Assembly (NCBI GenBank): GCA_028714815.1
Contig: JAQTLR010000002.1
Location: 124,001 to 188,000, forward strand
Source: Candidatus Altimarinota bacterium
GTDB taxonomy: Bacteria > Patescibacteriota > Gracilibacteria > BD1-5 > UBA2023
DNA: 64,000 nucleotides
Direction: 5' to 3'
The position numbers and the translations under genes are program-made. Of this stretch, positions 15,257 to 29,265 are shown piece after piece; the stretch's first letter is position 1, and each line of letters begins with the position of its first letter. The notes below the pieces were generated by a model. That model saw only the letters and a list, made by a program, of their open reading frames with translations, was not told where the DNA came from and made no database searches.

Positions 15257-16009
15257 ATGCAAACCATTCTTCAAAAACTCGAACCCATCCTCGGTGCTAA
15301 GCAAATCCCTTCTCCAGAAGAAAAGAAGCTCTTTCAGAGAACTCAAGACTTCATATGATATATCGGATGGATTCCAGGACTCCGTATGGTCGCGGTTTCC
15401 AATTCCCTCGCCATGTATGCGACACACGAGAACTCCGATATCGATCTCTTTATCATCACTGCTCCGCATCGGCTCTGGATCGTACGCACGCTCGTGCTTC
15501 TTGTGGCGACTCTTCTCCGGGTACGTGCCAAGCCAGGCGACGAGGCCGGAAAGTTCTGTTTTCCGTTTTTTATGACGGAAAAAAACATGAATCTGAAAGA
15601 GATCGCCCTAGAAGATGATATCTATCTCGCCTATTGGATCCGGACACTCAAACCTATCTATAATCAGGACTACACCTATGGACGGCTGATGGAGGTGAAC
15701 CGGGATTTTTATGAAAACACCCTCCGGATACATCCTTCCGAAGAAGAACGCAGTGCCCTCCTGAGAGAAAATAGGACCTTTCTCGTACTGACTTGGAAAC
15801 ATCCATGGGCAACGAAGCTCTGAATATTCCTCTCTCCCATCCTCTCTTTCAAGGATATGATTCTCGGACTTCTATCGAAGTGGTACATAACCAAAAAAAT
15901 CCCCTCCGGAAATACGGAAGGAATCATAATGAATGATGATATGCTAAAACTCCATTTTACCGATCGTCGGAGGGAGATTCGAGATCAGATTATGGGTTCT
16001 ATTAAGTAG
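15257..16009 (+). CDS. Nucleotidyltransferase-fold protein (250 aa)
   Basis: The protein has a minimal nucleotidyltransferase motif, SNSLAMYATHENSDIDLFIIT (residues about 46-66): the helix, then D-x-D of the pol-beta-like fold. It is followed by hydrophobic and basic sequence, and the rest resembles no enzyme I can name. TGA at about 15350 and 15822 read as Gly. It ends at TAG 16007-16009, overlapping the end of the convergent NACHT gene by 8 bases. Its last ~40 bases, encoding EIRDQIMGSIK, recur in altered form at 21990-22033, which may mark a site of island insertion. Confidence 0.75.
15972..15988 (+). repeat. Left copy of 17-bp direct repeat flanking the NACHT island
   Basis: GGGAGATTCGAGATCAG occurs here, within the 3' end of the nucleotidyltransferase gene, and exactly again at 21990-22006. 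Sequence beyond it remains similar at the protein level (IRDQIMGSIK versus IRDQVIASVSGQ). Confidence 0.7.
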
Positions 16010-19000
16010 TAATTATAGCTTTTAATCACATGGACTCATAGAGAGTTGTTACAATTTTGATGTTTGATTCAATTAAAAGGGTGGTTAGTTCGCTAGACTT
16101 AACCCTATCTCCAGAAGCTACTCGCCTCATATAACTATACATGAACTTATTCATAACATATGTTGGTATGGCAAAAACCTGACGTGGCATCATTTTATTA
16201 CCGAGCCGCCTGAAAGCGTTGAATTCACGACAAATCGTTTCTGTGCGCTCTTCCTTCTTGGAGAGATAATATACGTCATCCGAGATGGCGATATCGAGTC
16301 CGACATATTCTGCCCCATTCGGAGTCTTCATCTCCACAATGAGATCGACCCCTGCAAATACATCATCCGAGTCGCTCGTAAGGGATACGGAAGCCTCTAT
16401 ATGATCGGATCGAAGCATATCTTCGACGAGATCGCGTATCACTACCTCCACAAGGTTTTTGAGATGATAGTTCGGATCGCTACGGAATTGCTGGAACAAC
16501 AAAGCCCTTTCTGGGCTTATCTTCCAATTCGGCGCCTGATAGGATCGGGATTGTACCTCTTCTAAATACCACTTATTTATCACTTCTGATTCTTTGTATT
16601 CTTTTTTTCAAAGTTTCATACTTCTATAATTTCCACTTACAGCACTCTCCCAAAAATTTATCTGTTTCGCAAGAGTCTTATTGTATTTTCCTCTAACTTT
16701 TTTTATAGAACTACACAATGTTTTTCCTGATAGTTTATACAAAACCTCCAGTTTATATAAAATCTCCAACCCTACGAAAAACCACTCATTAGATATAACG
16801 TCTACTTCTTTTCATAAAAATTTCTCTAATTCATCCCACCTCTCCTCTTTTGCGAGTATTTCACCATAAAACAAGACTACCGGACGAAATTCCCGCCAGT
16901 CATTCCAGTTTTCGAGCTTTTTCTGGTCCCGAAAATCATAGATTTCCTGATTTCACTCATTCTTTGGCATCTCTGTGAGATGTTTCGCCAGAAAGAATTC
17001 ATAGAACGATTTGTGGATGAAGTCGTATGATCCGCTTTCCGTGCTCTTGAAGAGAATGGACAGATTTGCATCGAAAAACTTCTGGTCTATTTTTGTATTC
17101 TTGGTGTCCGAAAATATATCGAAAGCATATTTTCCGAGTCTTTCCATAAATATCTCGAGCATCGTTTCGGATCAAACCGATCCTTTCTGATCCATTTGGT
17201 GCTTCGCGAGCACGAATCGCACAACGCTCTCATACAGATCTGCATTGGTCCATATCTGGTCGAGCGGGAGTATATAGTAATCATTCATCCATTTTTTTTC
17301 GTCCTCTGTGGCGTTCGCAAGGAGGGTAATCAGGTTCAGGAGGAGTGGATTCCCCTTGATCTCATTCGCGAGTCCTTGATTCTTAATCCATTTTTTTACC
17401 TTCATTGCCTTGACTCAATCCCCCTGAAATCTCGACTCGATATATACATCCATATCGATGGCAGTAAAATACAAAACACAGGTTGTGTCATTGGGACTGA
17501 AAAACTCGGAGTGCCGGGTAGTTATGATGCTCCGTCCTGTGAAGCCACTAAACAGGCCCTTTATCTTCTCTCGTGTCTCCGGCTTCGCTTCATCGACTGC
17601 GTCGATACACACAAAAACATCCGGACTGTCGAATAATCCGTCGATATCTCCCATCCTATCATCGAACTCCTTCGCTCGGACGAATCGCACTTCTATATCT
17701 TGCTCCAGAGAGAAGTTCTTCACGAGTTCGGAGAGATAGATCGATTTTCCCTCTCCCACATGAGCACGAACGACAAACTTGGTATATTTCCCTCCCCCAT
17801 CGAACATATGGGGATGAAAATCCTTTTGCACCAGGGATGTATCTTTTTTGTTATTATCCGACTCAGAATCTCGTTCGTTTTTCGGTTCTCGTTTCTCTTC
17901 ATAGTACAGCTTCCTATCCGACACCGCACCTTTCTCTCCATTCTTAATCAATGGATCAAGTGAGTTCGATTGCAAAGTCATAGCCTCCTTGTAGGCAATC
18001 CTTGCCCGCTTCAAAGAAGCGTAAGAATCTTGCTGTCATTCTCTCGAAAATAACTCCCCCTCCTCACCGTTCCATATATCCTCCCGACTTATGAAAAGTT
18101 TCCGGAGAATAGTTCGTATTTTCGGGTCTTTGACATTCTGGAGAATGAGAATTTTTTCTTCAGCTGATATGGTTGCAGCCTCGGAAAGATAGTATCTTTC
18201 GATAGTGTTGTAGTCTTGGAGTCTAATGAGGTTGGCGAGGGAGAATACCCGTAAATCCACAGGTAAACCGAAATTCTCAAAGTACCCCTTAAATTTCTCC
18301 GGCTTCTCATAGAAAAATCTATTTATTTGATTTTGTGCTTTTTGGGGAGAGCTTGTTGTTATTATATCGTTGTTTTCTTTCCTGTTTATAAAGCTTGCGA
18401 TCCCTTCCATATTAGAAGGAGTTATCTCTATTTGCAATCCTCCTATTTTAAGTGGATGATTAATGGATTTCTCACAGTAATCTATTTGAAAATATGAGGC
18501 TTCTTCAAATATTGCCTCATTATCCTCATGGGTTCGATCCCTATCTGACTTAAGTACGTCAAATCATTCCGCGTATGATCTATTTCAGATAATCACGATT
18601 GTTTCATAATTTCATTGAGTTATATCAAAGACATCTTGCACTGCTTTTTTAATTTCAGTAACCTTATCAGCATCACTCAATCATCTTTCGTAGTTTTTAT
18701 TGGATCATGGTAAATTTACATGTCAGACAAATCAGAGACTTGGGAAAGTTTCTGATAAATCTTTCCCCGTAAGATTAGCACGTCCTTCTTTGCTTAAATC
18801 AAAGAAAAGAGCAGTTTTTTCTGGACTGGAAAATATTGTCTCATACAATTTCTTTACCTCATCAGGAAGTGTCTTAAATTCAGGAATTATCCGAATAATA
18901 TTCCCGAGTCTTTCTATTTTCGTATTGTTTTCTTTCTCGTCCTCCTTTCATTCAAGTTCCTTTCTTCTTTTAAGACATGCTTCATATTCGTACCATTCAG

Positions 19001-19178
19001 AAGTATCTATGTATGGATAATGTCTAAGAAGATAGATACGGAGTACAGTTTCTTTTAGGGTGTTTTGTGAATTGAGCACATCAGAAACATCCTCTTTTAT
19101 ATCTGATGATAAATTATTTATATCAGTGGTAAATGAGAGTGGAGTATTGAGGTGATTTTGGTGTTTTGATATATTCAT
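16002..19178 (-). CDS. NACHT-domain STAND NTPase (1058 aa) with unique C-terminal domain
   Basis: Five track-length pieces and several shorter ones join into one frame with about 15 UGA-Gly codons and no TAA/TAG until 16002. The N-terminal region (1-~460) is of unknown fold. The NTPase core has Walker A (HVGEGKS, about 474-479), Walker B (VCIDAVDEA, about 524-532), a sensor-like GRSIITTRHSEF, NPLLLNLITLL and FIHKSFYEFFLAKHL, the order typical of NACHT proteins. The C-terminal domain (about 834-1058) is homologous to the separate gene at 22237. Prokaryotic NACHT proteins often act in phage defence by sensing and abortive response; that role here is inferred. The ATG at 19178 follows a good promoter at 19207-19235. 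Confidence 0.85.
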
Positions 19179-19282: not shown

Positions 19283-19993
19283 TTATGGGAGATTTCGAAG
19301 AGCTTTTCGGATTTCTGTGATTACCATATTTCTATACTCTTTTGATTTTGGAGTATACTTAGCCGATATATCCTCGTCACTCCACTCTTTCCATTCCCTT
19401 TCAAGTTGATCGATGGGCATAAATTCAATTCTTTTTACTTCTTTCTTTTGAAGTTTAAGTTTTTCTAAATCAACTTCGTGCTGGAGAATAAAAACTCCAT
19501 CAAGTTCATTATTATGCCAATATTCGCCATTCATTGGCATGGTAATTTCTTCACGGTATATTCCAATCATCTTTAAATCCTCCGGCATTACATCGAGACC
19601 AATTTCTTCCTTCGTCTCGCGTAGCCCTCCTGTAATGAAATCCTCCCCGCTATCAACATGTCATGCAGCGGAAAAATCCCAGAGATTTGGATAGGGCCAC
19701 TTATCAGAGGCTCGTTGCTGTATAAGCACTTCTCATCTGGAATTATAGATCCATATATGTGAGGCAAGGTGTAAGGCTCAGATATTATGTGCCTCCTGTT
19801 TTCCAATTTCTCCGGATTTCGTAAATATAGGTAGTCCATTAGCAGCAATTTGCTCAGTAAAAATATCAAGGATTTCACCAATCTTCTTTCTCACCTCGTA
19901 TATCCTTTCATTGTGCTCAGGAGAGGTATTAATACCCAAGACATCTACATAATCAGGAGAATATACCTGAGATTTGATAAATTTTGTTTCCAT
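19283..19993 (-). CDS. Nudix hydrolase, IPP-isomerase-like (236 aa)
   Basis: With TGA as Gly a single frame from ATG 19993 to TAA 19283 carries a complete Nudix box, GHVDSGEDFITGGLRETKEEIGLDV (pattern Gx5Ex7REx2EExG); the first G of the box is a TGA codon. The N-terminal half (HLASHIWIYNSRGEVLIQQR, WPYPNLWDFSAAGHV) resembles the isopentenyl-diphosphate isomerase branch (YfcD type), members of which hydrolyse nucleotide diphosphates or isomerise IPP. The substrate cannot be told from sequence. It lies between the NACHT and GHMP-kinase-like genes, all on the minus strand. Confidence 0.85.
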
Positions 19994-20107: not shown

Positions 20108-21856
20108 CTATAAGTTATTTTTTATAATTCCTATTTTAGTATTCGTTATGTCTAATTTAAGATAAAAATCATTAATACCACCCTTACACACAAAAGGGAA
20201 ATCCACATCAAGTGTTTCTTTTATAATTTTTACAAGGGGAATTACTATTTTTCAAAGCATTTCATTTTTATTGGATGCATAGCTTGAGACGGGAAATTCC
20301 TTTACAGAAACATCTTCTCATTTGCGCTCAAGTAATATTTCAAGAACTTCACTGGTGGTATTTTGTGCAGGGATTTCTTTGGAGGTAAGCCGTACTCAGT
20401 TGATATAAATCTTCTTCGAAATAGTATCAATCAAAAGTCCTTTCTGTTCTTTTTCCAAAATATCATTATGAGTACCGAGATATGAATCACCGAGATTATT
20501 TTTATAAACTACTTGATTTTTTGGAATAAATTTTGAATATATTTTATTATTAATAAATTGTTCTATGATAATTCCATCATGGGATGTACCATCCACATAA
20601 GAGCAATAGTCAATTTCCACATTTGGATAAATTTTACGCATTTCTTCGAGAGTAATATCGAGTGTATCGCGACTCATTCAAGGATTCATAATAAAAACGC
20701 ACCCCCCTCATAGCTTACTTGAATAGATTGGTAATATTCCTATATTCTCAAGCGTATTTTTTTGAAATTTCTGAAAAAGAAAATGAAACTGTTCTGCAAA
20801 GTGATTTTCCTTGGAAATAGTCGAGAGCATCTTTCTTTGGTTGTTTATGTGTTCGATAAAATTTGAAATCACTTGAAAATCAAGACCAGAGCGATAGATA
20901 TTTCGAAGAAAATAGACTGTTTTTATACTAAGGAAGCTCAATATTTGCCCATAAGCATTTGTAAGAGTACTAGAGTCGGAGAAAGAATCGAAGAAATATC
21001 CGGACCGATCTTGTAAAATGTCTTTTCTTATAAAATCACTATACTTTTCAAAACCTGAAAAGTCAGATTCCTTCATTTCCTCAATCTGTTTTGAACTTGT
21101 TTCAATTCCAGTGAAGATTACCCCATAATCAAGGGGAAGTTCTCGTTCCGATAAACTACATGTATCCAAACACTGGACAGGAAGGACTCAGACTTCTATT
21201 TCCTCTATAATATCCTTCTCTCCTTCGGATAGAAATTCCTGACAATACACAGACAAAGGGGCTCCTGTGCTCGAAAATGTGCTTCTAATTGCCTGAGAGA
21301 TGGTATTTCCATATCGAGAAATAAGAGACAAAGACCATGCAAACTTAAGAATTTCCCTAATTTGAGTTCACTGTTCGAATTCAGAATAATTTTTAAGAGC
21401 CTCTGATTCAGTTTTTCAATAAAATAAATATAGAGCGGTTGATAAGATAGCAAAGGATGTATCACTAAATCAAAAAGAGTGACCTCGTGGTATTTCTGAA
21501 AGGATGGATATAGTAACCCCCTCGATCTTTCCGTTTTCTGTTAAAAATTTTTGAATTTTTTCTCTTATCATATCCTCTTCTTTGATTACCTTTCCATAAG
21601 AGATAGACTCTACTGACTTCTTTAAATTATTAAAAAAGACTACATCGGTAAACTCTATTTTTTTATTTGTATTCTTTTTTAGTCAGATATAGCATTTAAG
21701 CGGTATTTTTGAGCGTGTAAGTACATATTTTGATTGATGCAAAATCCCTTCGTTTCCCCACGACATTGAAAAACACCCACTCACCACCAGATCGTTTTTC
21801 GAGAAGAAATCTCTGTATACTTCTGGGAAATTTTTCTGGAGCTGGGTGCTGTTCAT
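20108..21856 (-). CDS. GHMP-kinase-like protein (582 aa)
   Basis: A single 582-aa frame with about ten UGA-Gly codons. The middle holds a GHMP motif 2-like stretch, EIPRGHSFGFSDTSFAILSTAL (about residues 118-139), and the C-terminal region has KLGGGCVFIMNPGM, resembling the glycine-rich motif 3 of GHMP small-molecule kinases. The usual P-x3-GLGSS loop is altered (GHSFGFSDTS), so activity is uncertain. A C-terminal extension of about 180 residues is unassigned. The neighbouring IPP-isomerase-like Nudix gene suggests an isoprenoid or sugar phosphate context, but that is inference. Confidence 0.6.
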
Positions 21857-21989: not shown

Positions 21990-22006
21990 GGGAGATTCGA
22001 GATCAG
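21990..22006 (+). repeat. Right copy of 17-bp direct repeat flanking the NACHT island
   Basis: An exact second copy of GGGAGATTCGAGATCAG. In the + frame it continues as EIRDQVIASVSGQ then TAG, a diverged copy of the nucleotidyltransferase C-terminus without the rest of that gene. Confidence 0.7.
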
Positions 22007-22013
22007 GTAATTG

Positions 22014-22236: not shown

Positions 22237-23028
22237 TTATTCCTGAGGAAGTAAAAGAGAATTTACATGAGATTGGATTTCTTGAAACATTTTTCAGAAA
22301 TCTTCTCTCGGGATGGCTTTTTTGGCGACTTGTATATTTGCCAACATTTCATATGCTTCAAGGAAAGTCGGTGGGTTAAGAGAACTTGCCTGTTCCATAT
22401 ATTCAGAAAGAAAAACTGCCATCCATTCTGGTCGGATCGCAAGAACGGTTCGAGGCATCCCCCGTTCTTTTCTGTGCCTCTTATAATTGTATTCCCGACA
22501 CTCCGTAATAAAAGGATAGAGCTTTTCATTTAAATACGTTGCATTTCTCGAAACCGCCAAATCCACCGAAATAGGAGTTATGACCCCATCTTTTTCGAGT
22601 TCAACAATGAAATCCGTTTTCGAAAATACATCATCGTGATCACTTGTGATAAGTACCTTTCCTTTTATGCCCTGTTTATAAAGATAGCCCTCCAGTACAT
22701 CACGCATCGCCATCTCGGCGATATTTTTGACCGGATAGTTCCGATCCTCTTTGAATTTTTGAAGTAGCTCCTGTTCCCGAGGATTTCGCACCTCCCACTT
22801 GGGAGATTTTGCTTCATAGGTTTCTCTGGTTTGTCTGTACCATACACGAATATTGTTCGCAAAATTAGCATCCGATTCAGACATAAGAGAAAATTGGTTG
22901 TTTATGGATTGGTTCCAGAAGGCAATTTCCCTATGAATATTTTTTTCATGATCCATAAGCGTATTGACAAGCGTCGATGCTCCGCGAGAGTCGATTTCTC
23001 GTTCGGAGGCGGTGAGATGAGTGTGCAT
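22237..23028 (-). CDS. Stand-alone homologue of the NACHT C-terminal domain (263 aa)
   Basis: This protein aligns over most of its length with the last ~225 residues of the NACHT protein. Shared blocks include FW, a WY pair, P-x-W...RE-x-x-LL, F-x-x-D-x-NY, the TSD-x-DDVF-x3-D-x-IVE motif, and a D-x-A-x-S stretch (VDLAVS here, LDIAIS there). Conserved acidic residues around a beta-strand pattern hint at a nuclease-like fold (PD-(D/E)xK is the nearest idea), but the diagnostic lysine is absent, so I do not assign activity. TGA at 22294 reads as Gly and the end is TAA 22237. The start is ATG 23028. Confidence 0.7.
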
Positions 23029-23056: not shown

Positions 23057-25870
23057 TTAGGAAAGATACTGCGCTGGGGTTTTTATACCCAATTCTTCCA
23101 ATCTTGAAAGAGCTACAGATTTAGGGAATCCATTTTTCTCAAGCCTCTCAGCCATCTCTTTAAGCGCTTCACGACCATGAAAGAAATTCACATCACTTCC
23201 AATTCCTCGGAATGCCGTAATGAGTGTCTGTTCTTGTTCTGGAGTTACTGGTGTCCTAAAAGTGATATCATACTTTCCATTTTTTGAGACGATATCGAAA
23301 GCATCTTCCTTTCCAATAGTTCCTGAGGCTATGGCTTTCGCAATGATATCTTTTTCATCCTGAGAAAGGGTAACAAACCGTTTCTGAATTTCGGCAGTCA
23401 CAAATTGTCCATTCTCATCGATGACCCCTTCCTTTTTCCACGAAGCTAACATATCTTCCTGCTTATGTTCCTTTCATGTATCCCAAGCGATTTTCCCAGC
23501 AACGACCAGAGCAACAACCACAGCAGTGACCCATCCTCATCTTTTTGCAAATTGCGCCAATTCCTTTGTTTCTCCAGCTTTAATTGATTTTAAAAGTCCA
23601 GCAGATCACTTTGCCGCAGCCGTTCCGGTTTTACTGATTCCTCCAACAAAATCCACTACCATCGTAACTGGTCTTCCGATAAATCGAGCTGTTTCTAATA
23701 TTTTGTTTGAAGAACGGAGGATTTTTACAACTCCCCACGCATCAAGTGCAACCATTCCTGATGCTGTTACAATATAACCAGTGCTTGGCATTCCAGTCTC
23801 CTTATTAAGAGCACTTCCTTCCCTGAGGAAAAAATACTCCCCAACAAAAGGTACAAACATACTGAATCCTTTTACAAGCGCAGATAATTTTTCTGAAGGA
23901 GTGTTTCCTTCTGCAAGAGCTCCTCCTCCAGTAATAACCAGAGCGATATTTGAGAAGAATCCCTTTACAAGGTTGGGGGATTCCTGAACAAGCCGACTCA
24001 ATACTCATTTGAATTTATCAACCTCATTTGCTTGAACCGAAAGAATCGTTTTATTTGCAATCCCTGGAAGCGTTTCAAATCGTCCAACATTTTTCATCTG
24101 AGTCCATATCTCTCCAAGGGTAGAACCGTTATTTTTGACAGCCTCTCCAAGTCCTGTAAGAACTGACTTTGCTCGTTCGTATGTTTCTGCCCTAAAGAGT
24201 TTCGGATCCGCATATGAACCCTTCGCCCATTTCTCCGCACCTCCCATAAGTTTTGATACATCCGTAAGACTGTGATCTTGACTCATTTTCTGTATCTCTG
24301 CACCAATTGTAGGAGCATAACTATGAAGAGGTTTGTTCGTATCAGAAATAATCATCCGTATCGCTTCGATGGAAGACTTATGAATATCTACACTTACTTT
24401 TTCCAGGCTCTCAAGATTCTTGAGAAACTCCTGAGATGAAGCGGATTTCTTATAAAGATCTGTAATGAGTGTTTTAGTATATACTTCTTGCATAATGACT
24501 CGAAGTTCACCTGCCACAGTATTGTTTGTGTCCCCCAGCATCTGAAGGATTACTTTTGGTCATTCCGCAGCCTTATCATATTTTCCGAGAAGTGCATTAT
24601 ACCCACTCTTGAGAGCATCCCACCCAACTCGTTCATTCCATGTTGGATACATGGTCATGAGATTTGTGAGTCATCCGGCAAATACCCCTGTAAGATAGGT
24701 GGTAAGTCCGAATCGATGATATACTGTGTACCCCAAAACCTCCTTTTGCTGAGGAGAAAGATTGGAATAATCCTGACCCAGTTCTTCGATGGACATCTCT
24801 CCAAAAATCTGATCGAGTTCACTTCGTCCAAAACCAAGGAGCGATCGACCGGTTGCGATACCAAACTGAACAATACGATCCGTTCCGGCCTTGATCTGCA
24901 TAGCGATGGCTTCTTTCGGGATAATTCCTTCGGAAACGAGATCAAACATAAAATTGAGAGAAGCCTTTCCTCCAAGTACCGCCCCGTCTAAAAGATAGAC
25001 TGTTTCACCGTCCTTGTAGGATCCAATTATATTCTTTGCATTTGCGTCAATAGTTGTGGAATATTTATTCCATACCTTCTCAAATTTCTGAGCTTTATCA
25101 GAGTCTTTAAAATTCACTCCCCATTCTTTCGAGAGTTTATCCATAAAAGCTTGTTTTTTCTTACTGACAGCTTCTTTGAGCTTATCAGTATTTCCTAGTT
25201 CATTTTTTGCTTTATCCAAACCGTCTTTCATCGCTCATTCCGCCGTCTTCTCCAATGTTTTTGCCTTCTCCAAATCCGCCTTTGGTACGAAAAATCCAAC
25301 TATTCCCGAGAAGAACTTGATGATTCCGGCAAGAAAAGCATAGATTCCACCCTTTGCCTCCAATCCTTCCGCCATGGCATCCATCTTGACCGCAAGCCCT
25401 GCCATCGACCCTATTTTTTTAGCTTCATCCACTATTCCCTCAGCTTTTTTCTTTGCATCAGCAATACTCTTAGATGATGCAAGTTCTTTCATTTTATCAG
25501 CAGTTTCTGTGCCAAACTCTTTTGTTTTTTCGGCCATTGCTCCTGCACCTGATTTCATAGAATCCATATCCATTCCGTCAAATGCCTTCGCAATAGTACT
25601 TTCTGTACCGGTCATTTTTTCTATGAGCATTTTCATCTTTGTCTTATCCTGGACTGTCATACCGACCTTCATATTATTGAATGCTTCCTTGGCATCCAAT
25701 TTAGAAGTCGAAAACTGCTCAAGCTTAGTAAGAAGAACATTGGCGTCCGTTTTTTCTTTCGGAGCAAGATTCTCCATACCATTTTTAAGAGCATCAAGCG
25801 CATCGCGAGTGGATGCTTCCATATGAGGGGTTTCTGGGAGAAATTCCGGAGTTTTCATAATATCTGCCAT
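23057..25870 (-). CDS. Very large membrane-associated protein, unknown (937 aa)
   Basis: Five pieces in one frame join across UGA-Gly codons. The N-terminal ~170 residues are rich in A, K, M and E and helical (coiled-coil-like). A hydrophobic hairpin follows (GGIYAFLAGIIKFFSGIVGFFV, about 180-200), then long helical and mixed regions. Late hydrophobic stretches include LVKGFFSNIALVITGGGAL (about 640) and VTAVVVALVVAGKIAW (about 790). No enzyme motif is seen. It follows the 1092-aa gene in the same direction, after a terminator-like hairpin, and both look like lineage-specific envelope proteins. Confidence 0.7.
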
Positions 25871-25986: not shown

Positions 25987-28900
25987 TTACCATTTTTCAA
26001 TAGTTTCAGAGGCTTTCTTCACAGCATCGATTTGAAGAAGTGTTAGAGTATCAATCATAGGACTCAATTGCATATTCTTAACATACTCAAGAAATGCTAT
26101 GGCCCCGCTGGAAATCCCTTTTGCATCGGGATGGTTCGAATGAAGATCATTTACTGCCTGTGTACCAACATACGCAACAAGTGCCATAGTTGCAAGTGCT
26201 TGCATTTTATGATCTTTAAGTGTACCTTCCTGGAAAGCATCTTTATTTCCGAGAAAAATTGTCTTCAGGATGTCCTTCGTTTTACTCGTCGATTCGCCTC
26301 GAATCGTTTCAAAGATGGTACGAGTAGTAACAATTGGATATCGGACAACATTAGCGACTGTACCAGGTATAGCCATCAATCCATCCGTTTTCGCTTCCTT
26401 TGTAAACATATCATAAATAAATTTTCCCGGAGTATCCTTGAAATATGCAATAGTATCGTCAAATCCTTTCCAAAAGGCTTTCGTATTTACAATAGCATCG
26501 AAAACAGCATCCGGATTACGGTCAATGAGTCGTGATATTTCTTCGGAAGTAAGTTCCCTATCTCCAGCAATTTCCTTTTTAATGAATTTCCCCTCCTTAT
26601 TAATCGCATATTCAGTCTCTCCTACACGGACTTCCCGTGCAGGATTTCCTTTTTGTTCCTTTATAGTATCGATGATTCCTTTTGATTTATTCCCCTCCTT
26701 AAGGAATAAAGCGAATTTTTTCTGCGTATCGAAACTTCGCACTCCATTATTTTCTGGAAGAGTTACATCAAGTTTCTTGGTTTGAATATTCCACTTCACA
26801 GAATATTCTCCGACAACTATAGGATCTGTACTCTTTTTCGCCTGTTTCCATATATCACCCGCAGCCTTGAGGAATTTTCCTTCGGATAGCTTTTCAGGAG
26901 CAGGCTCTGTAGGAGCGGCGGTTCCGGCTTCATTCGGAGTCGCAGGACGAACAGGCTCTCCTGCAAGACGTTCTATGACGAAATTCTTACTTCCTTCTCC
27001 TCGTCCAGCCATAGGATCTGCAATGAGAGCCTCATTAGTTTCAAAATATCTTATATCGTCACCGTTCGTAAGTTTCCATCGTCCGTCTGCAAGTTTTTCC
27101 AATATCCCCATATCTCTCAATCGGACAGTATCACCAGGCTGTGCCTCGTTGATGAATCTGGTTTTTGCCTCTTTCGTCGATAACCGTTGATTTCTGGTAT
27201 ACTCACGAATTGTCGGTGCTCTTTCCGCAACGACCGTGGGGATACTCGTATTCTCCGCTACCGGTTCCGCTCTTATTTCCCCATTTGGAGCCTTCGATAT
27301 CATCACCCTGCTCGCACCCTTGAAGAATGCGGCCATGAGCATCGCTTGAGCGAGCTGTTCCGGCGTCCAATTATCCCGTCCATCGACCATGATATGACCA
27401 ACAGCTCCGGCCGTTCCGAAAATTGCAGCACCTTCGATCATGATCTGTCCAGTGAATGGAAGGATATTATTTCAGAATCCGGCACCCTCTTTGAACCGGA
27501 TACCGTTTCCGAATACCCCATTTTCGATCAGGCTTCCGACCCCTTTCAGGGCTCCCATCATAGCAATGGACTGCGCGTATCATTCTCTTGTTCAGAGAGT
27601 ACCCCCTTCGCCTTCCATAACACTCACCATATTGGCATGTCAGAGCTCGAATCCGGCACCACTTCCAAAAATACGCCCGACAGTGGTTGTCATCTGACGT
27701 GTTTTCGATGCAGCGTTATATGCCTCAACCGCCTTGGCTCATCGATAGGCGTTACGACCGAGCATCGCAGTATTGATTGCAGCTGTACCAAGTCCGGCAG
27801 TTACTGTTCCAACAGCAAGCGCAATAGCCTCAAGCGCCAACATCTTGGCAACCTCCCCGGTCATGTCTGTAGTCCGATCAGACATCTTCCATGTACCAGC
27901 TCCAAGGACATCCTGAAGCATCTTGAGTCCAGGATCGGATTGCGGTTTATTATACATGGCTTGGTATGCTATTTCCTGCTTCGCGAAGTGAATGACAGTA
28001 AGTTTTTCATTTTGCAATCGTGCTGCCTCTTCATTGATCTTCACTCCTGGGTTCTGTTGCTTATACTCATTAATATATTCTTTCTTATTCTCATTCCAGT
28101 TCTTGGTCGCTTCTGCTCTCGCCTTCCCGATAACCTCACGCACTTTCTCTATTCCTGTCTTTCCAAGTCCAGTCGATGAAAGATCCACCCCCTCTTTGGT
28201 AAGATCCGAATCCGCCGGGAAACCGAATGCACCCTGATTCTCCTGGATAAGAGTCTTTGCAACGAGATCATGCTGTCCGAGCCGTTCCCGGACAAATTGG
28301 AGCACTGCCAGATGACGTACTTTCGGATCCTCTTTTCGAAGTGCTTCATTGATGGATTTCAAATCGGTATCACCAAATGATACACGGAAATTCGAGAAAA
28401 GTTTTCCTGTTATCTCTGTAATGCTCTTTATGTCGATCATTTTCTTTCCGAGCCTGACGTCATTATCGGCAAAAAGCTTCTTCGCAGATTCTGCCGCAGT
28501 ACCGTACTTAACCTTTTCCTTTGGATTCGCAAGAAGATATGCATCCAATACAAGCGCAAGATCCTGAACGATAGCAACCGACTTCTGAAGTTTCTCCGGA
28601 GCATCTTTCGGCATACCGACAGTTTGTGCAAGACTCTGGAAATCGACGCGAGTCGGATGTCCCTTCGGTCCGATGAGATAGTATGCCCCATCTTTGAAGA
28701 TCATTTCTGGTTTTACTGTTTTAAGAATATCCTTTTGTTCCATCGGCATAACAGACACTATCTTCTTTTCTTCACCTTTCGGTTGTACTGAATTTTCTCA
28801 TTTCTTTTCCGCTTTCGGAGCGGATGCTTTCTCATTTTGAGCAGCTTCCGGCGATTTTTTATTTTTCTGTTCTCTCTCTTCTTTTAGTTTCCTAGCAGAA

Positions 28901-29265
28901 GATTCCTTCTCTTGTTTCTCCTTTTCTTGTCTCTCCTTTTCTTGCTTCTCTTTCTCCTCTTCTACTTTACGAGCCGCTTCAGCAGTCACTGCTGCTTTGT
29001 TTTTATTGAATTTCTCCTCATATTGTGTCTGAAGCCTTTCCCACTCGCGAAAAAGCGGTTTTAGACCCGTGGTTGGATAGTTTTTTTCCTCATTCACGAT
29101 AAAATCGCGAACCGCTTGTATATCCTGTTCGGTTACTTTATGGATATCACCCGGTGTCATCTCACCAGAAAGGACATCCATGCGATCATATTCGAGTGGT
29201 TTTCCATCAACCTTTTTACGGAAAAAATCAATCTGAGTCTCGACATTGTATTTATTGGCTCCCAT
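25987..29265 (-). CDS. Very large protein, unknown, with coiled-coil N-terminus (1092 aa)
   Basis: Three long pieces and a TGA-dense linker (27442-27738) form one frame from ATG 29265 to TAA 25987 with about six UGA-Gly. Residues about 90-155 are a highly charged E/K/Q coiled coil. Around 320-360 lies a glycine-alanine-rich hydrophobic stretch (AIALAVGTVTAGLGTAAINTAM), followed by glycine-rich sequence, a basic-polar middle (with an A-T-P-E-rich segment near 760-780) and a late hydrophobic stretch (ALATMALVAYVGTQAV). No known catalytic motif. It is perhaps a secreted or membrane-embedded structural protein, but this is not demonstrated. Confidence 0.7.

What the first reader, a model, noticed from the sequence alone, without database searches (positions are those of the whole stretch)
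16002..19178. A 1058-aa NACHT NTPase hidden by the code change
Several fragments join into one protein with Walker A, Walker B and the NACHT C-terminal landmarks, a long N-terminal region of unknown fold and a C-terminal domain shared with a separate gene. Prokaryotic NACHT proteins are known immune sensors; in a host-associated small genome such a defence gene is notable. Annotation with the standard code would record only short pieces and miss it.
Basis: partly seen in the sequence, partly recalled or inferred. Interest (0 to 1): 0.7.

Follow-up and report, generated by a model that had tools for sequence, protein, structure and literature searches.

The report
NACHT protein with kinase-like partner gene
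In a small bacterium that reads TGA as glycine there is an intact NACHT switch protein, related to animal and bacterial immune receptors, whose start resembles a histidine phosphatase and whose gene, like all its relatives, travels directly behind a gene for a kinase-shaped protein; that pairing appears undescribed, and an immune role is plausible but unproven.

Summary
Confirmed: window 16002-19178, minus strand, encodes one intact 1058-aa protein under code 25 (15 in-frame TGA), with Walker A/B and NACHT landmarks. Its modelled core superposes on NLRP/NLRC4 structures (best Z 13.9). In all 12 genomes of the class (353 searched) that carry this domain, a ~580-aa homologue of window 20108-21856 lies directly upstream; it models confidently as a GHMP kinase (Z 27, mevalonate kinase). 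In the window a NUDIX gene lies between the two. The cassette is patchy, low in G+C and flanked by a 17-nt exact repeat, so probably mobile. Relatives end in HEAT/TPR-like repeats; this copy instead ends in a domain shared with a stand-alone gene, seen fused only here. Most likely a NACHT signalling switch coupled to a kinase/phosphatase-fold pair, perhaps immune. No defence database, phage, plasmid or literature match supports an immune role directly. New variant of a known kind.

The parts
16002..19178 (-). 1058-aa STAND/NACHT protein (P0001), complete under code 25
18399..19061 (-). N-terminal histidine-phosphatase-like domain (about residues 40-260; RH52-53, R133, N199 in place of the second His)
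16959..17801 (-). NACHT NTPase and associated helical region (about residues 460-740): Walker A 472-479, Walker B 521-530, GNPLLL 609-614, FIHKSFYEFF 720-729
16005..16703 (-). C-terminal domain (about residues 826-1058) shared with stand-alone genes; conserved E, DD, D, D, S, K; predicted alpha-beta-beta-beta-alpha core, low model confidence
19283..19993 (-). NUDIX hydrolase gene (236 aa), nearest to isopentenyl-diphosphate isomerase models but below their cut-offs
20108..21856 (-). 582-aa GHMP-kinase-fold protein with a very conserved C-terminal module (P0002); homologues lie directly upstream of every N-domain gene found
22237..23028 (-). stand-alone homologue (263 aa) of the C-terminal domain of P0001
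15972..15993 (+). direct repeat copy 1 (17 nt exact, 22 nt at 91%), at the 3' end of the convergent gene
21990..22011 (+). direct repeat copy 2, upstream of P0002; the repeat brackets P0002-NUDIX-P0001

Best explanation
P0001 is an intact STAND NTPase of the NACHT clade. It belongs to an accessory cassette of Gracilibacteria and relatives in which a GHMP-kinase-fold gene always precedes a gene with a divergent histidine-phosphatase domain. Proposed mechanism: the C-terminal superstructure (HEAT/TPR-like repeats in relatives) recognises a trigger, NTP binding lets the NACHT core assemble, and the assembly changes the activity or ligand occupancy of the N-terminal phosphatase-like domain. The GHMP-fold partner makes, binds or reports the same phosphorylated small molecule. 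NUDIX, present in some loci, fits the same small-phosphate theme. The biological role is most likely stress or immune-type signalling. In this genome the repeats are missing and a domain shared with stand-alone genes is fused in their place, so this copy may have a re-wired sensor or may be partly disabled. Shown: intact frame, NACHT core, the phosphatase-like N-domain by profile match, the GHMP fold by model, and universal pairing in 12 of 12 genomes. Inferred: the switch mechanism, the shared ligand, and the immune or stress role.
For: NACHT core: VIA-align Z 13.9 (rmsd 5.8, 380 aligned) to NLRP2 and 13.8 to NLRC4; Pfam NACHT above its cut-off in two close relatives (L033 28.7 and L048 30.4 against 26.7 bits); nSTAND_NTPase5 2.5e-4 in P0001. 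N-domain: R52 and H53 invariant in 9 sequences; hhalign against 19 PF00300 domains of the same lineage scores 44.1 (prob 85%), with RH, R..T and GN aligned to RHG, RA..TA and VAH, against a maximum of 17.7 in 100 column-shuffled controls. Partner: model pLDDT 88, GHMP kinases at Foldseek E 7e-13 and Z 27.4. Pairing: every N-domain gene, apart from one 38-aa chance hit, has a P0002 homologue directly upstream on the same strand (coordinates). A second P0002 subfamily is followed within a few kb by a different protein that ends in a true histidine phosphatase domain (prob 98%, E 1.6e-14), so the GHMP/HisPhos link recurs. Mobility: 13 of 353 genomes, G+C down to 0.32, GC3 0.29 in P0002 against 0.575 in SecA, flanking 17-nt exact repeat.
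Against: No antiphage library match to P0001 or P0002, no defence-island context seen, and nothing in phages, plasmids or viral contigs. The second phosphatase His is Asn in nearly all members and the GHMP catalytic Asp position is not conserved, so both may be binding domains rather than enzymes. P0002 is mostly solo (53 of 353 genomes), so its function does not need the NACHT protein. This copy lacks the repeats that would be the sensor.
Confidence: 0.5

Rival explanations
1. A conventional bNACHT antiphage protein: C-terminal sensing of phage protein, NACHT assembly, and an N-terminal effector that kills or arrests the cell. The upstream GHMP-fold gene is only a regulator or accessory.
For: Tripartite architecture in relatives (N-domain, NACHT, HEAT/TPR-like repeats); patchy, low-G+C, repeat-flanked cassette; weak match of L118 to antiphage NACHT EruA (E 9.6e-6). 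Known bNACHT proteins are tripartite with an N-terminal effector (PMC12169576).
Against: The N-domain is not a known killing effector and has lost one catalytic His; no PADLOC match; this copy lacks the repeats; an obligatory partner gene is unlike the single-gene bNACHT cases described in PMC12169576.
Confidence: 0.25
2. A non-immune regulatory STAND protein (in the manner of metabolite-sensing STAND regulators), in which the GHMP-fold protein and the phosphatase-like domain read a metabolite and control gene expression or metabolism.
For: The GHMP partner is mostly solo and lies next to a threonine-synthase-like enzyme in three loci; NUDIX and phosphatase-like domains suggest a small phosphate ligand; in two genomes the N-domain is joined to an S4 RNA-binding domain instead of NACHT.
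Against: Very patchy distribution and signs of mobility fit accessory conflict genes better than a core pathway; no DNA-binding domain could be demonstrated.
Confidence: 0.2
3. This copy is a by-product: a cassette integrated beside or inside a resident gene, its STAND gene lost its repeats and ran in frame into a copy of the resident gene, and the 1058-aa protein is on the way to decay.
For: The fusion occurs only here; stand-alone CTD genes occur without NACHT in many genomes. In G005 a single CTD gene sits next to the same convergent gene without the cassette. The first 30 aa of the window's stand-alone copy are 73% identical to that G005 gene and the rest about 35%, while P0001's CTD shows the opposite pattern (7%, then mostly 33-63%).
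Against: The frame and all NTPase motifs are intact over 1058 codons with 15 reassigned codons; the direct-repeat boundaries would place the CTD of P0001 inside the inserted unit rather than in the resident gene.
Confidence: 0.2

Closest known systems
bNACHT antiphage proteins (e.g. bNACHT25 in PMC12169576; EruA model NF058535 in NCBIfam)
   Same: NACHT-clade STAND core; tripartite plan in relatives; patchy accessory gene
   Different: N-terminal domain is a divergent histidine phosphatase, not a nuclease or other described effector; an upstream GHMP-fold partner is always present; no tested immunity; no library match above cut-off
Animal NLRs (NLRP2, NLRP3, NLRC4, NOD2)
   Same: NACHT plus winged-helix/helical region superposes (Z 13-14, 340-397 residues)
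   Different: No leucine-rich repeats, different N-terminal domain, distant sequence (11-17% identity)
Histidine phosphatase superfamily, branch 1 (PF00300)
   Same: RH motif, Arg in an R..T helix motif, alternating beta/alpha order
   Different: RHY/RHF instead of RHG; second His replaced by Asn except in L042/L119; below Pfam detection except a weak hit in L042 (E 0.06)
GHMP kinases (mevalonate kinase, galactokinase, homoserine kinase)
   Same: Residues 19-440 of P0002 model as this fold with high confidence
   Different: Altered glycine loop, catalytic Asp position not conserved, extra very conserved C-terminal module of ~115 aa, family apparently without a name in Pfam or NCBIfam
Ternary NTP-dependent conflict systems (PMC7159879)
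   Same: STAND NTPases combined with enzymatic and small-molecule domains in multi-gene accessory loci
   Different: That paper does not mention histidine phosphatase or GHMP domains; no vWA-MoxR core here

Membership tests
NACHT-clade STAND NTPase | Walker A GxxxxGK[ST] and Walker B hhhhD[GAS]hDE with the extra acidic pair | tested here: met
   AHVGEGKS 472-479 (first Gly is Ala here, GKAGSGKS in L033/L118) and VFVCIDAVDE 521-530
NACHT-clade STAND NTPase | Profile match to NACHT (PF05729) above the curated score | tested here: inconclusive
   Not reached by P0001, but reached by close relatives L033 (28.7 bits) and L048 (30.4 bits) against 26.7
NACHT-clade STAND NTPase | Fold of NTPase plus winged-helix/helical region as in NLRs | tested here: met
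   Z 13.9, rmsd 5.8, 380 residues to NLRP2; 13.8 to NLRC4; model pLDDT about 70-86 there
Antiphage bNACHT system | Protection against phage | not testable with these tools
   Needs expression and phage challenge
Antiphage bNACHT system | C-terminal sensor domain on this protein | tested here: inconclusive
   Relatives have HEAT/TPR-like repeats; this copy has a 230-aa domain shared with stand-alone genes instead
Antiphage bNACHT system | Match to models of known defence proteins | tested here: inconclusive
   No PADLOC match for P0001 or P0002; weak NCBIfam EruA match in relative L118, 24 bits against a cut-off of 1000
Histidine phosphatase superfamily | RH[GE] motif with catalytic His and Arg | tested here: met
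   RH invariant in 9 of 9 sequences, followed by Y, F, L or G
Histidine phosphatase superfamily | Second catalytic His after the strand (VxHG-like) | tested here: not met
   N199 in P0001 (GNRSY); Asn or Arg in all but L042/L119, which have GH. So: a divergent, possibly inactive relative, not filed as an active phosphatase
Histidine phosphatase superfamily | Profile-level homology | tested here: met
   hhalign score 44.1, prob 85%, against 17.7 maximum of 100 shuffles and 11.8 reversed
GHMP kinase (partner P0002) | Fold | tested here: met
   Z 27.4 to mevalonate kinase 8tfo, rmsd 3.4, 338 residues; pLDDT 88
GHMP kinase (partner P0002) | Catalytic Asp and canonical ATP loop | tested here: inconclusive
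   Motifs 2 and 3 recognisable; Asp position judged by eye on the alignment is not conserved; some GHMP kinases such as homoserine kinase lack it (own knowledge)
PD-(D/E)XK nuclease (C-terminal domain) | alpha-beta-beta-beta-alpha core with acidic residues and Lys | tested here: inconclusive
   Invariant E86, D113, D114, D120, D137 and near-invariant K150 (numbering); predicted order alpha, three strands, alpha but pLDDT under 50; no profile or fold match

The most novel reading that the evidence does not exclude
A new class of two-gene STAND signalling system in Gracilibacteria/SR1: a GHMP-kinase-fold protein sets the phosphorylation or occupancy of a small molecule, a degenerate histidine-phosphatase domain reads or removes it, and that domain is the input or output of a NACHT switch, giving a metabolite-coupled innate immune receptor in bacteria with reassigned TGA.
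Probability: 0.25. Interest if true: 0.75.

Novelty: new variant of a known kind. Interest (0 to 1): 0.55.

Why it matters
NACHT proteins are a shared currency of bacterial, fungal and animal immunity, and the known bacterial set comes mostly from well-annotated genomes. Here a family is broken up by standard-code annotation. Its N-terminal domain and its constant partner gene point to a small phosphorylated molecule as part of the signal, which would be an unusual logic for this receptor class and can be tested with purified proteins.

Tried and rejected
Relatives of P0001 by back-translated patterns in genome contigs: none; in phages and plasmids: none; P0002 family in viral contigs: none; alignments A1 and A2 too diverse for that search. 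PDB sequence searches with P0001, A1 and A2: nothing credible. OmpR/PhoB winged helix for the C-terminal module of P0002: suggested by residue order and predicted secondary structure, but hhalign score 17.2 against a shuffle maximum of 18.8, so not claimed. Direct profile comparison of the N-domain with the other P0002-associated phosphatase domain: no match, although both match PF00300-type domains. The fold search of P0001 was filled by its NTPase core, so the N-domain alone is not tested against solved structures. A first impression that L034 and L104 lacked the partner was wrong: longer antisense frames hid it, and the profile search found it. Promoter and terminator scans were at chance level.

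Full report
Observation. Window 16002-19178 on the minus strand is one open frame of 1058 aa under code 25 with 15 in-frame TGA; under code 11 the same strand shows only pieces of 185, 199 and 133 aa. The reassignment is supported by homologues: at the TGA positions of the neighbouring conserved protein P0002 the commonest non-TGA residue is Gly, and invariant glycines are written TGA in some genomes and GGN in others. The genome is a 1.2 Mb assembly in 23 contigs. Its closest named relative with the same locus is a Candidatus Gracilibacteria MAG (L113, the contig that one search lists as same-genus genome G001).

NTPase. P0001 has Walker A (AHVGEGKS, 472-479), Walker B (VFVCIDAVDE, 521-530), a sensor-like IITTRHSEF, GNPLLL (609-614) and the NACHT landmark DFIHKSFYEFFLAKHL (719-734). 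Pfam gives only nSTAND_NTPase5 below cut-off for P0001 itself, but two relatives pass the NACHT cut-off. The AlphaFold2 model has pLDDT of about 70-86 in this region. VIA-align places it on NLRP2 (Z 13.9), NLRC4 (13.8), NLRP7, NLRP3 and NOD2. The NACHT assignment is therefore firm.

N-terminal domain. Alignment of nine homologues shows R52 and H53 as invariant, in the context hhhhRH[YFLG]. The most divergent member, from Candidate division SR1 bacterium RAAC1_SR1_1 (L042/L119), reads RIFFVRHGIS...GHKSNAG and gives a weak PF00300 hit (E 0.06). Nineteen true PF00300 domains were collected from genomes of the same lineage. hhalign of the N-domain profile against theirs gives score 44.1 and probability 85%, with RH, the Arg of the R..T helix and the G-N turn all in register with RHG, RA..TA and the second His. 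One hundred column-shuffled controls reach at most 17.7. The predicted order of strands and helices fits. The second His is Asn (N199) or Arg in all other members, so activity is doubtful. Two genomes carry the same domain joined to an S4 RNA-binding domain instead of NACHT.

Partner gene. In the window the next gene but one upstream (20108-21856) encodes P0002, 582 aa, without any Pfam or NCBIfam family. Its model has pLDDT 88 and matches GHMP kinases (Foldseek 7e-13; Z 27.4 to mevalonate kinase). Comparison of coordinates shows that in all 12 genomes with a genuine N-domain gene (G000, G001, G013, G014, G016, G023, G032, G039, G046, G051, G070, G106) a P0002 homologue lies directly upstream on the same strand, with 0 to about 220 nt between them. 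The window is the exception in spacing, because a NUDIX gene sits between the two; NUDIX genes also lie directly upstream of P0002 homologues in L114, L117, L131 and L135. P0002 itself is wider: 53 of 353 genomes of the class and 9 of 380 sampled across the phylum, usually alone. The one-sided rule (N-domain implies P0002, not the reverse) suggests that P0002 supplies something the N-domain needs.

Recurring association. A second P0002 subfamily (L120, L121, L123, L124, L127) has downstream, at 0.5 to 4 kb, a different protein that ends in a histidine phosphatase domain (prob 98%, E 1.6e-14 to the PF00300 set), with weak matches to a c-di-GMP phosphodiesterase-type response regulator before it. 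A third subfamily lies next to a threonine-synthase-like enzyme (L116, L126, L128). The kinase-fold/phosphatase-fold pairing thus recurs in two architectures. The Asp position of GHMP kinases is not conserved in P0002, so both partners may bind rather than turn over their ligand.

C-terminal domain and the history of this copy. Relatives of the body continue into long repeats: HEAT in L042 and L048, TPR-like in L030 and L034. P0001 instead carries, from about residue 826, a domain that elsewhere is a stand-alone gene of about 260 aa (18 of 353 genomes), one of them in the window at 22237-23028. Conserved acidic residues, a Lys and the predicted strand order resemble a PD-(D/E)XK core, but the model is poor there and nothing confirms it. 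Genome G005 shows the neighbourhood without the cassette: a single stand-alone gene followed by the same convergent gene as in the window. The first 30 residues of the window's stand-alone copy are 73% identical to the G005 gene and the rest about 35%, while the C-terminal part of P0001 has the reverse pattern. A 22-nt direct repeat, 17 nt of it exact, lies at 15972-15993 (end of the convergent gene) and 21990-22011 (upstream of P0002), bracketing P0002-NUDIX-P0001. G+C falls to 0.32 inside, and GC3 of P0002 is 0.29 against 0.575 for SecA. The cassette was most likely inserted here; whether the fused domain came with it or was captured on the spot is not settled.

Mechanism. Best supported: a NACHT switch whose N-terminal phosphatase-like domain works with a GHMP-fold partner on a small phosphorylated ligand, as accessory stress or immune signalling. 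The switch core, the domain identities and the pairing rest on tool results; the ligand, the direction of signalling and the immune role are inference. Against immunity stand the lack of PADLOC matches to P0001 and P0002, the absence from phage, plasmid and viral collections and the missing repeats in this copy. For it stand patchiness, signs of mobility and the tripartite plan that bNACHT proteins share (PMC12169576).

Known or new. No paper in the library held both Gracilibacteria and NACHT, and the main survey of STAND-containing conflict systems does not mention histidine phosphatase or GHMP domains (PMC7159879). Most subscription papers are not in that library, so absence there is weak evidence. 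The protein is a new variant of a known kind.

Noticed in passing
G000:C6:17724-18275 (L057); also L050, L052-L055, L063-L065, L067-L069: What reads as isoleucyl-tRNA synthetase in these Gracilibacteria carries one or two histidine phosphatase domains inserted in frame, and in some genomes also alpha/beta-hydrolase-like, NUDIX-like or DUF559-like stretches (recognised by eye). Striking and apparently unexplained.
   Followed up: partly
G000:C10:10506-12308: A second P0002 homologue in the window's own genome, without a NACHT gene found beside it.
   Followed up: no
G000:C4:32383-32970 (L107): A third copy of the C-terminal-domain family in the own genome, with neighbours shared with G004.
   Followed up: no
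L116, L118, L119, L135, L131, L115, L126: A small gene of about 100 aa without known family recurs next to P0002 or the NACHT gene.
   Followed up: partly
window 23057-25870 and 25987-29265, minus strand: Two long genes (937 and 1092 aa, code 25) with no credible Pfam or PADLOC match; 937 aa has a weak relative in G003 next to the same convergent gene.
   Followed up: no
L116:3049-6433, L131:5372-8818, L132:6400-9914: A transglutaminase-core gene recurs upstream of P0002 homologues, with a peptidase S41 gene before it in L116.
   Followed up: no
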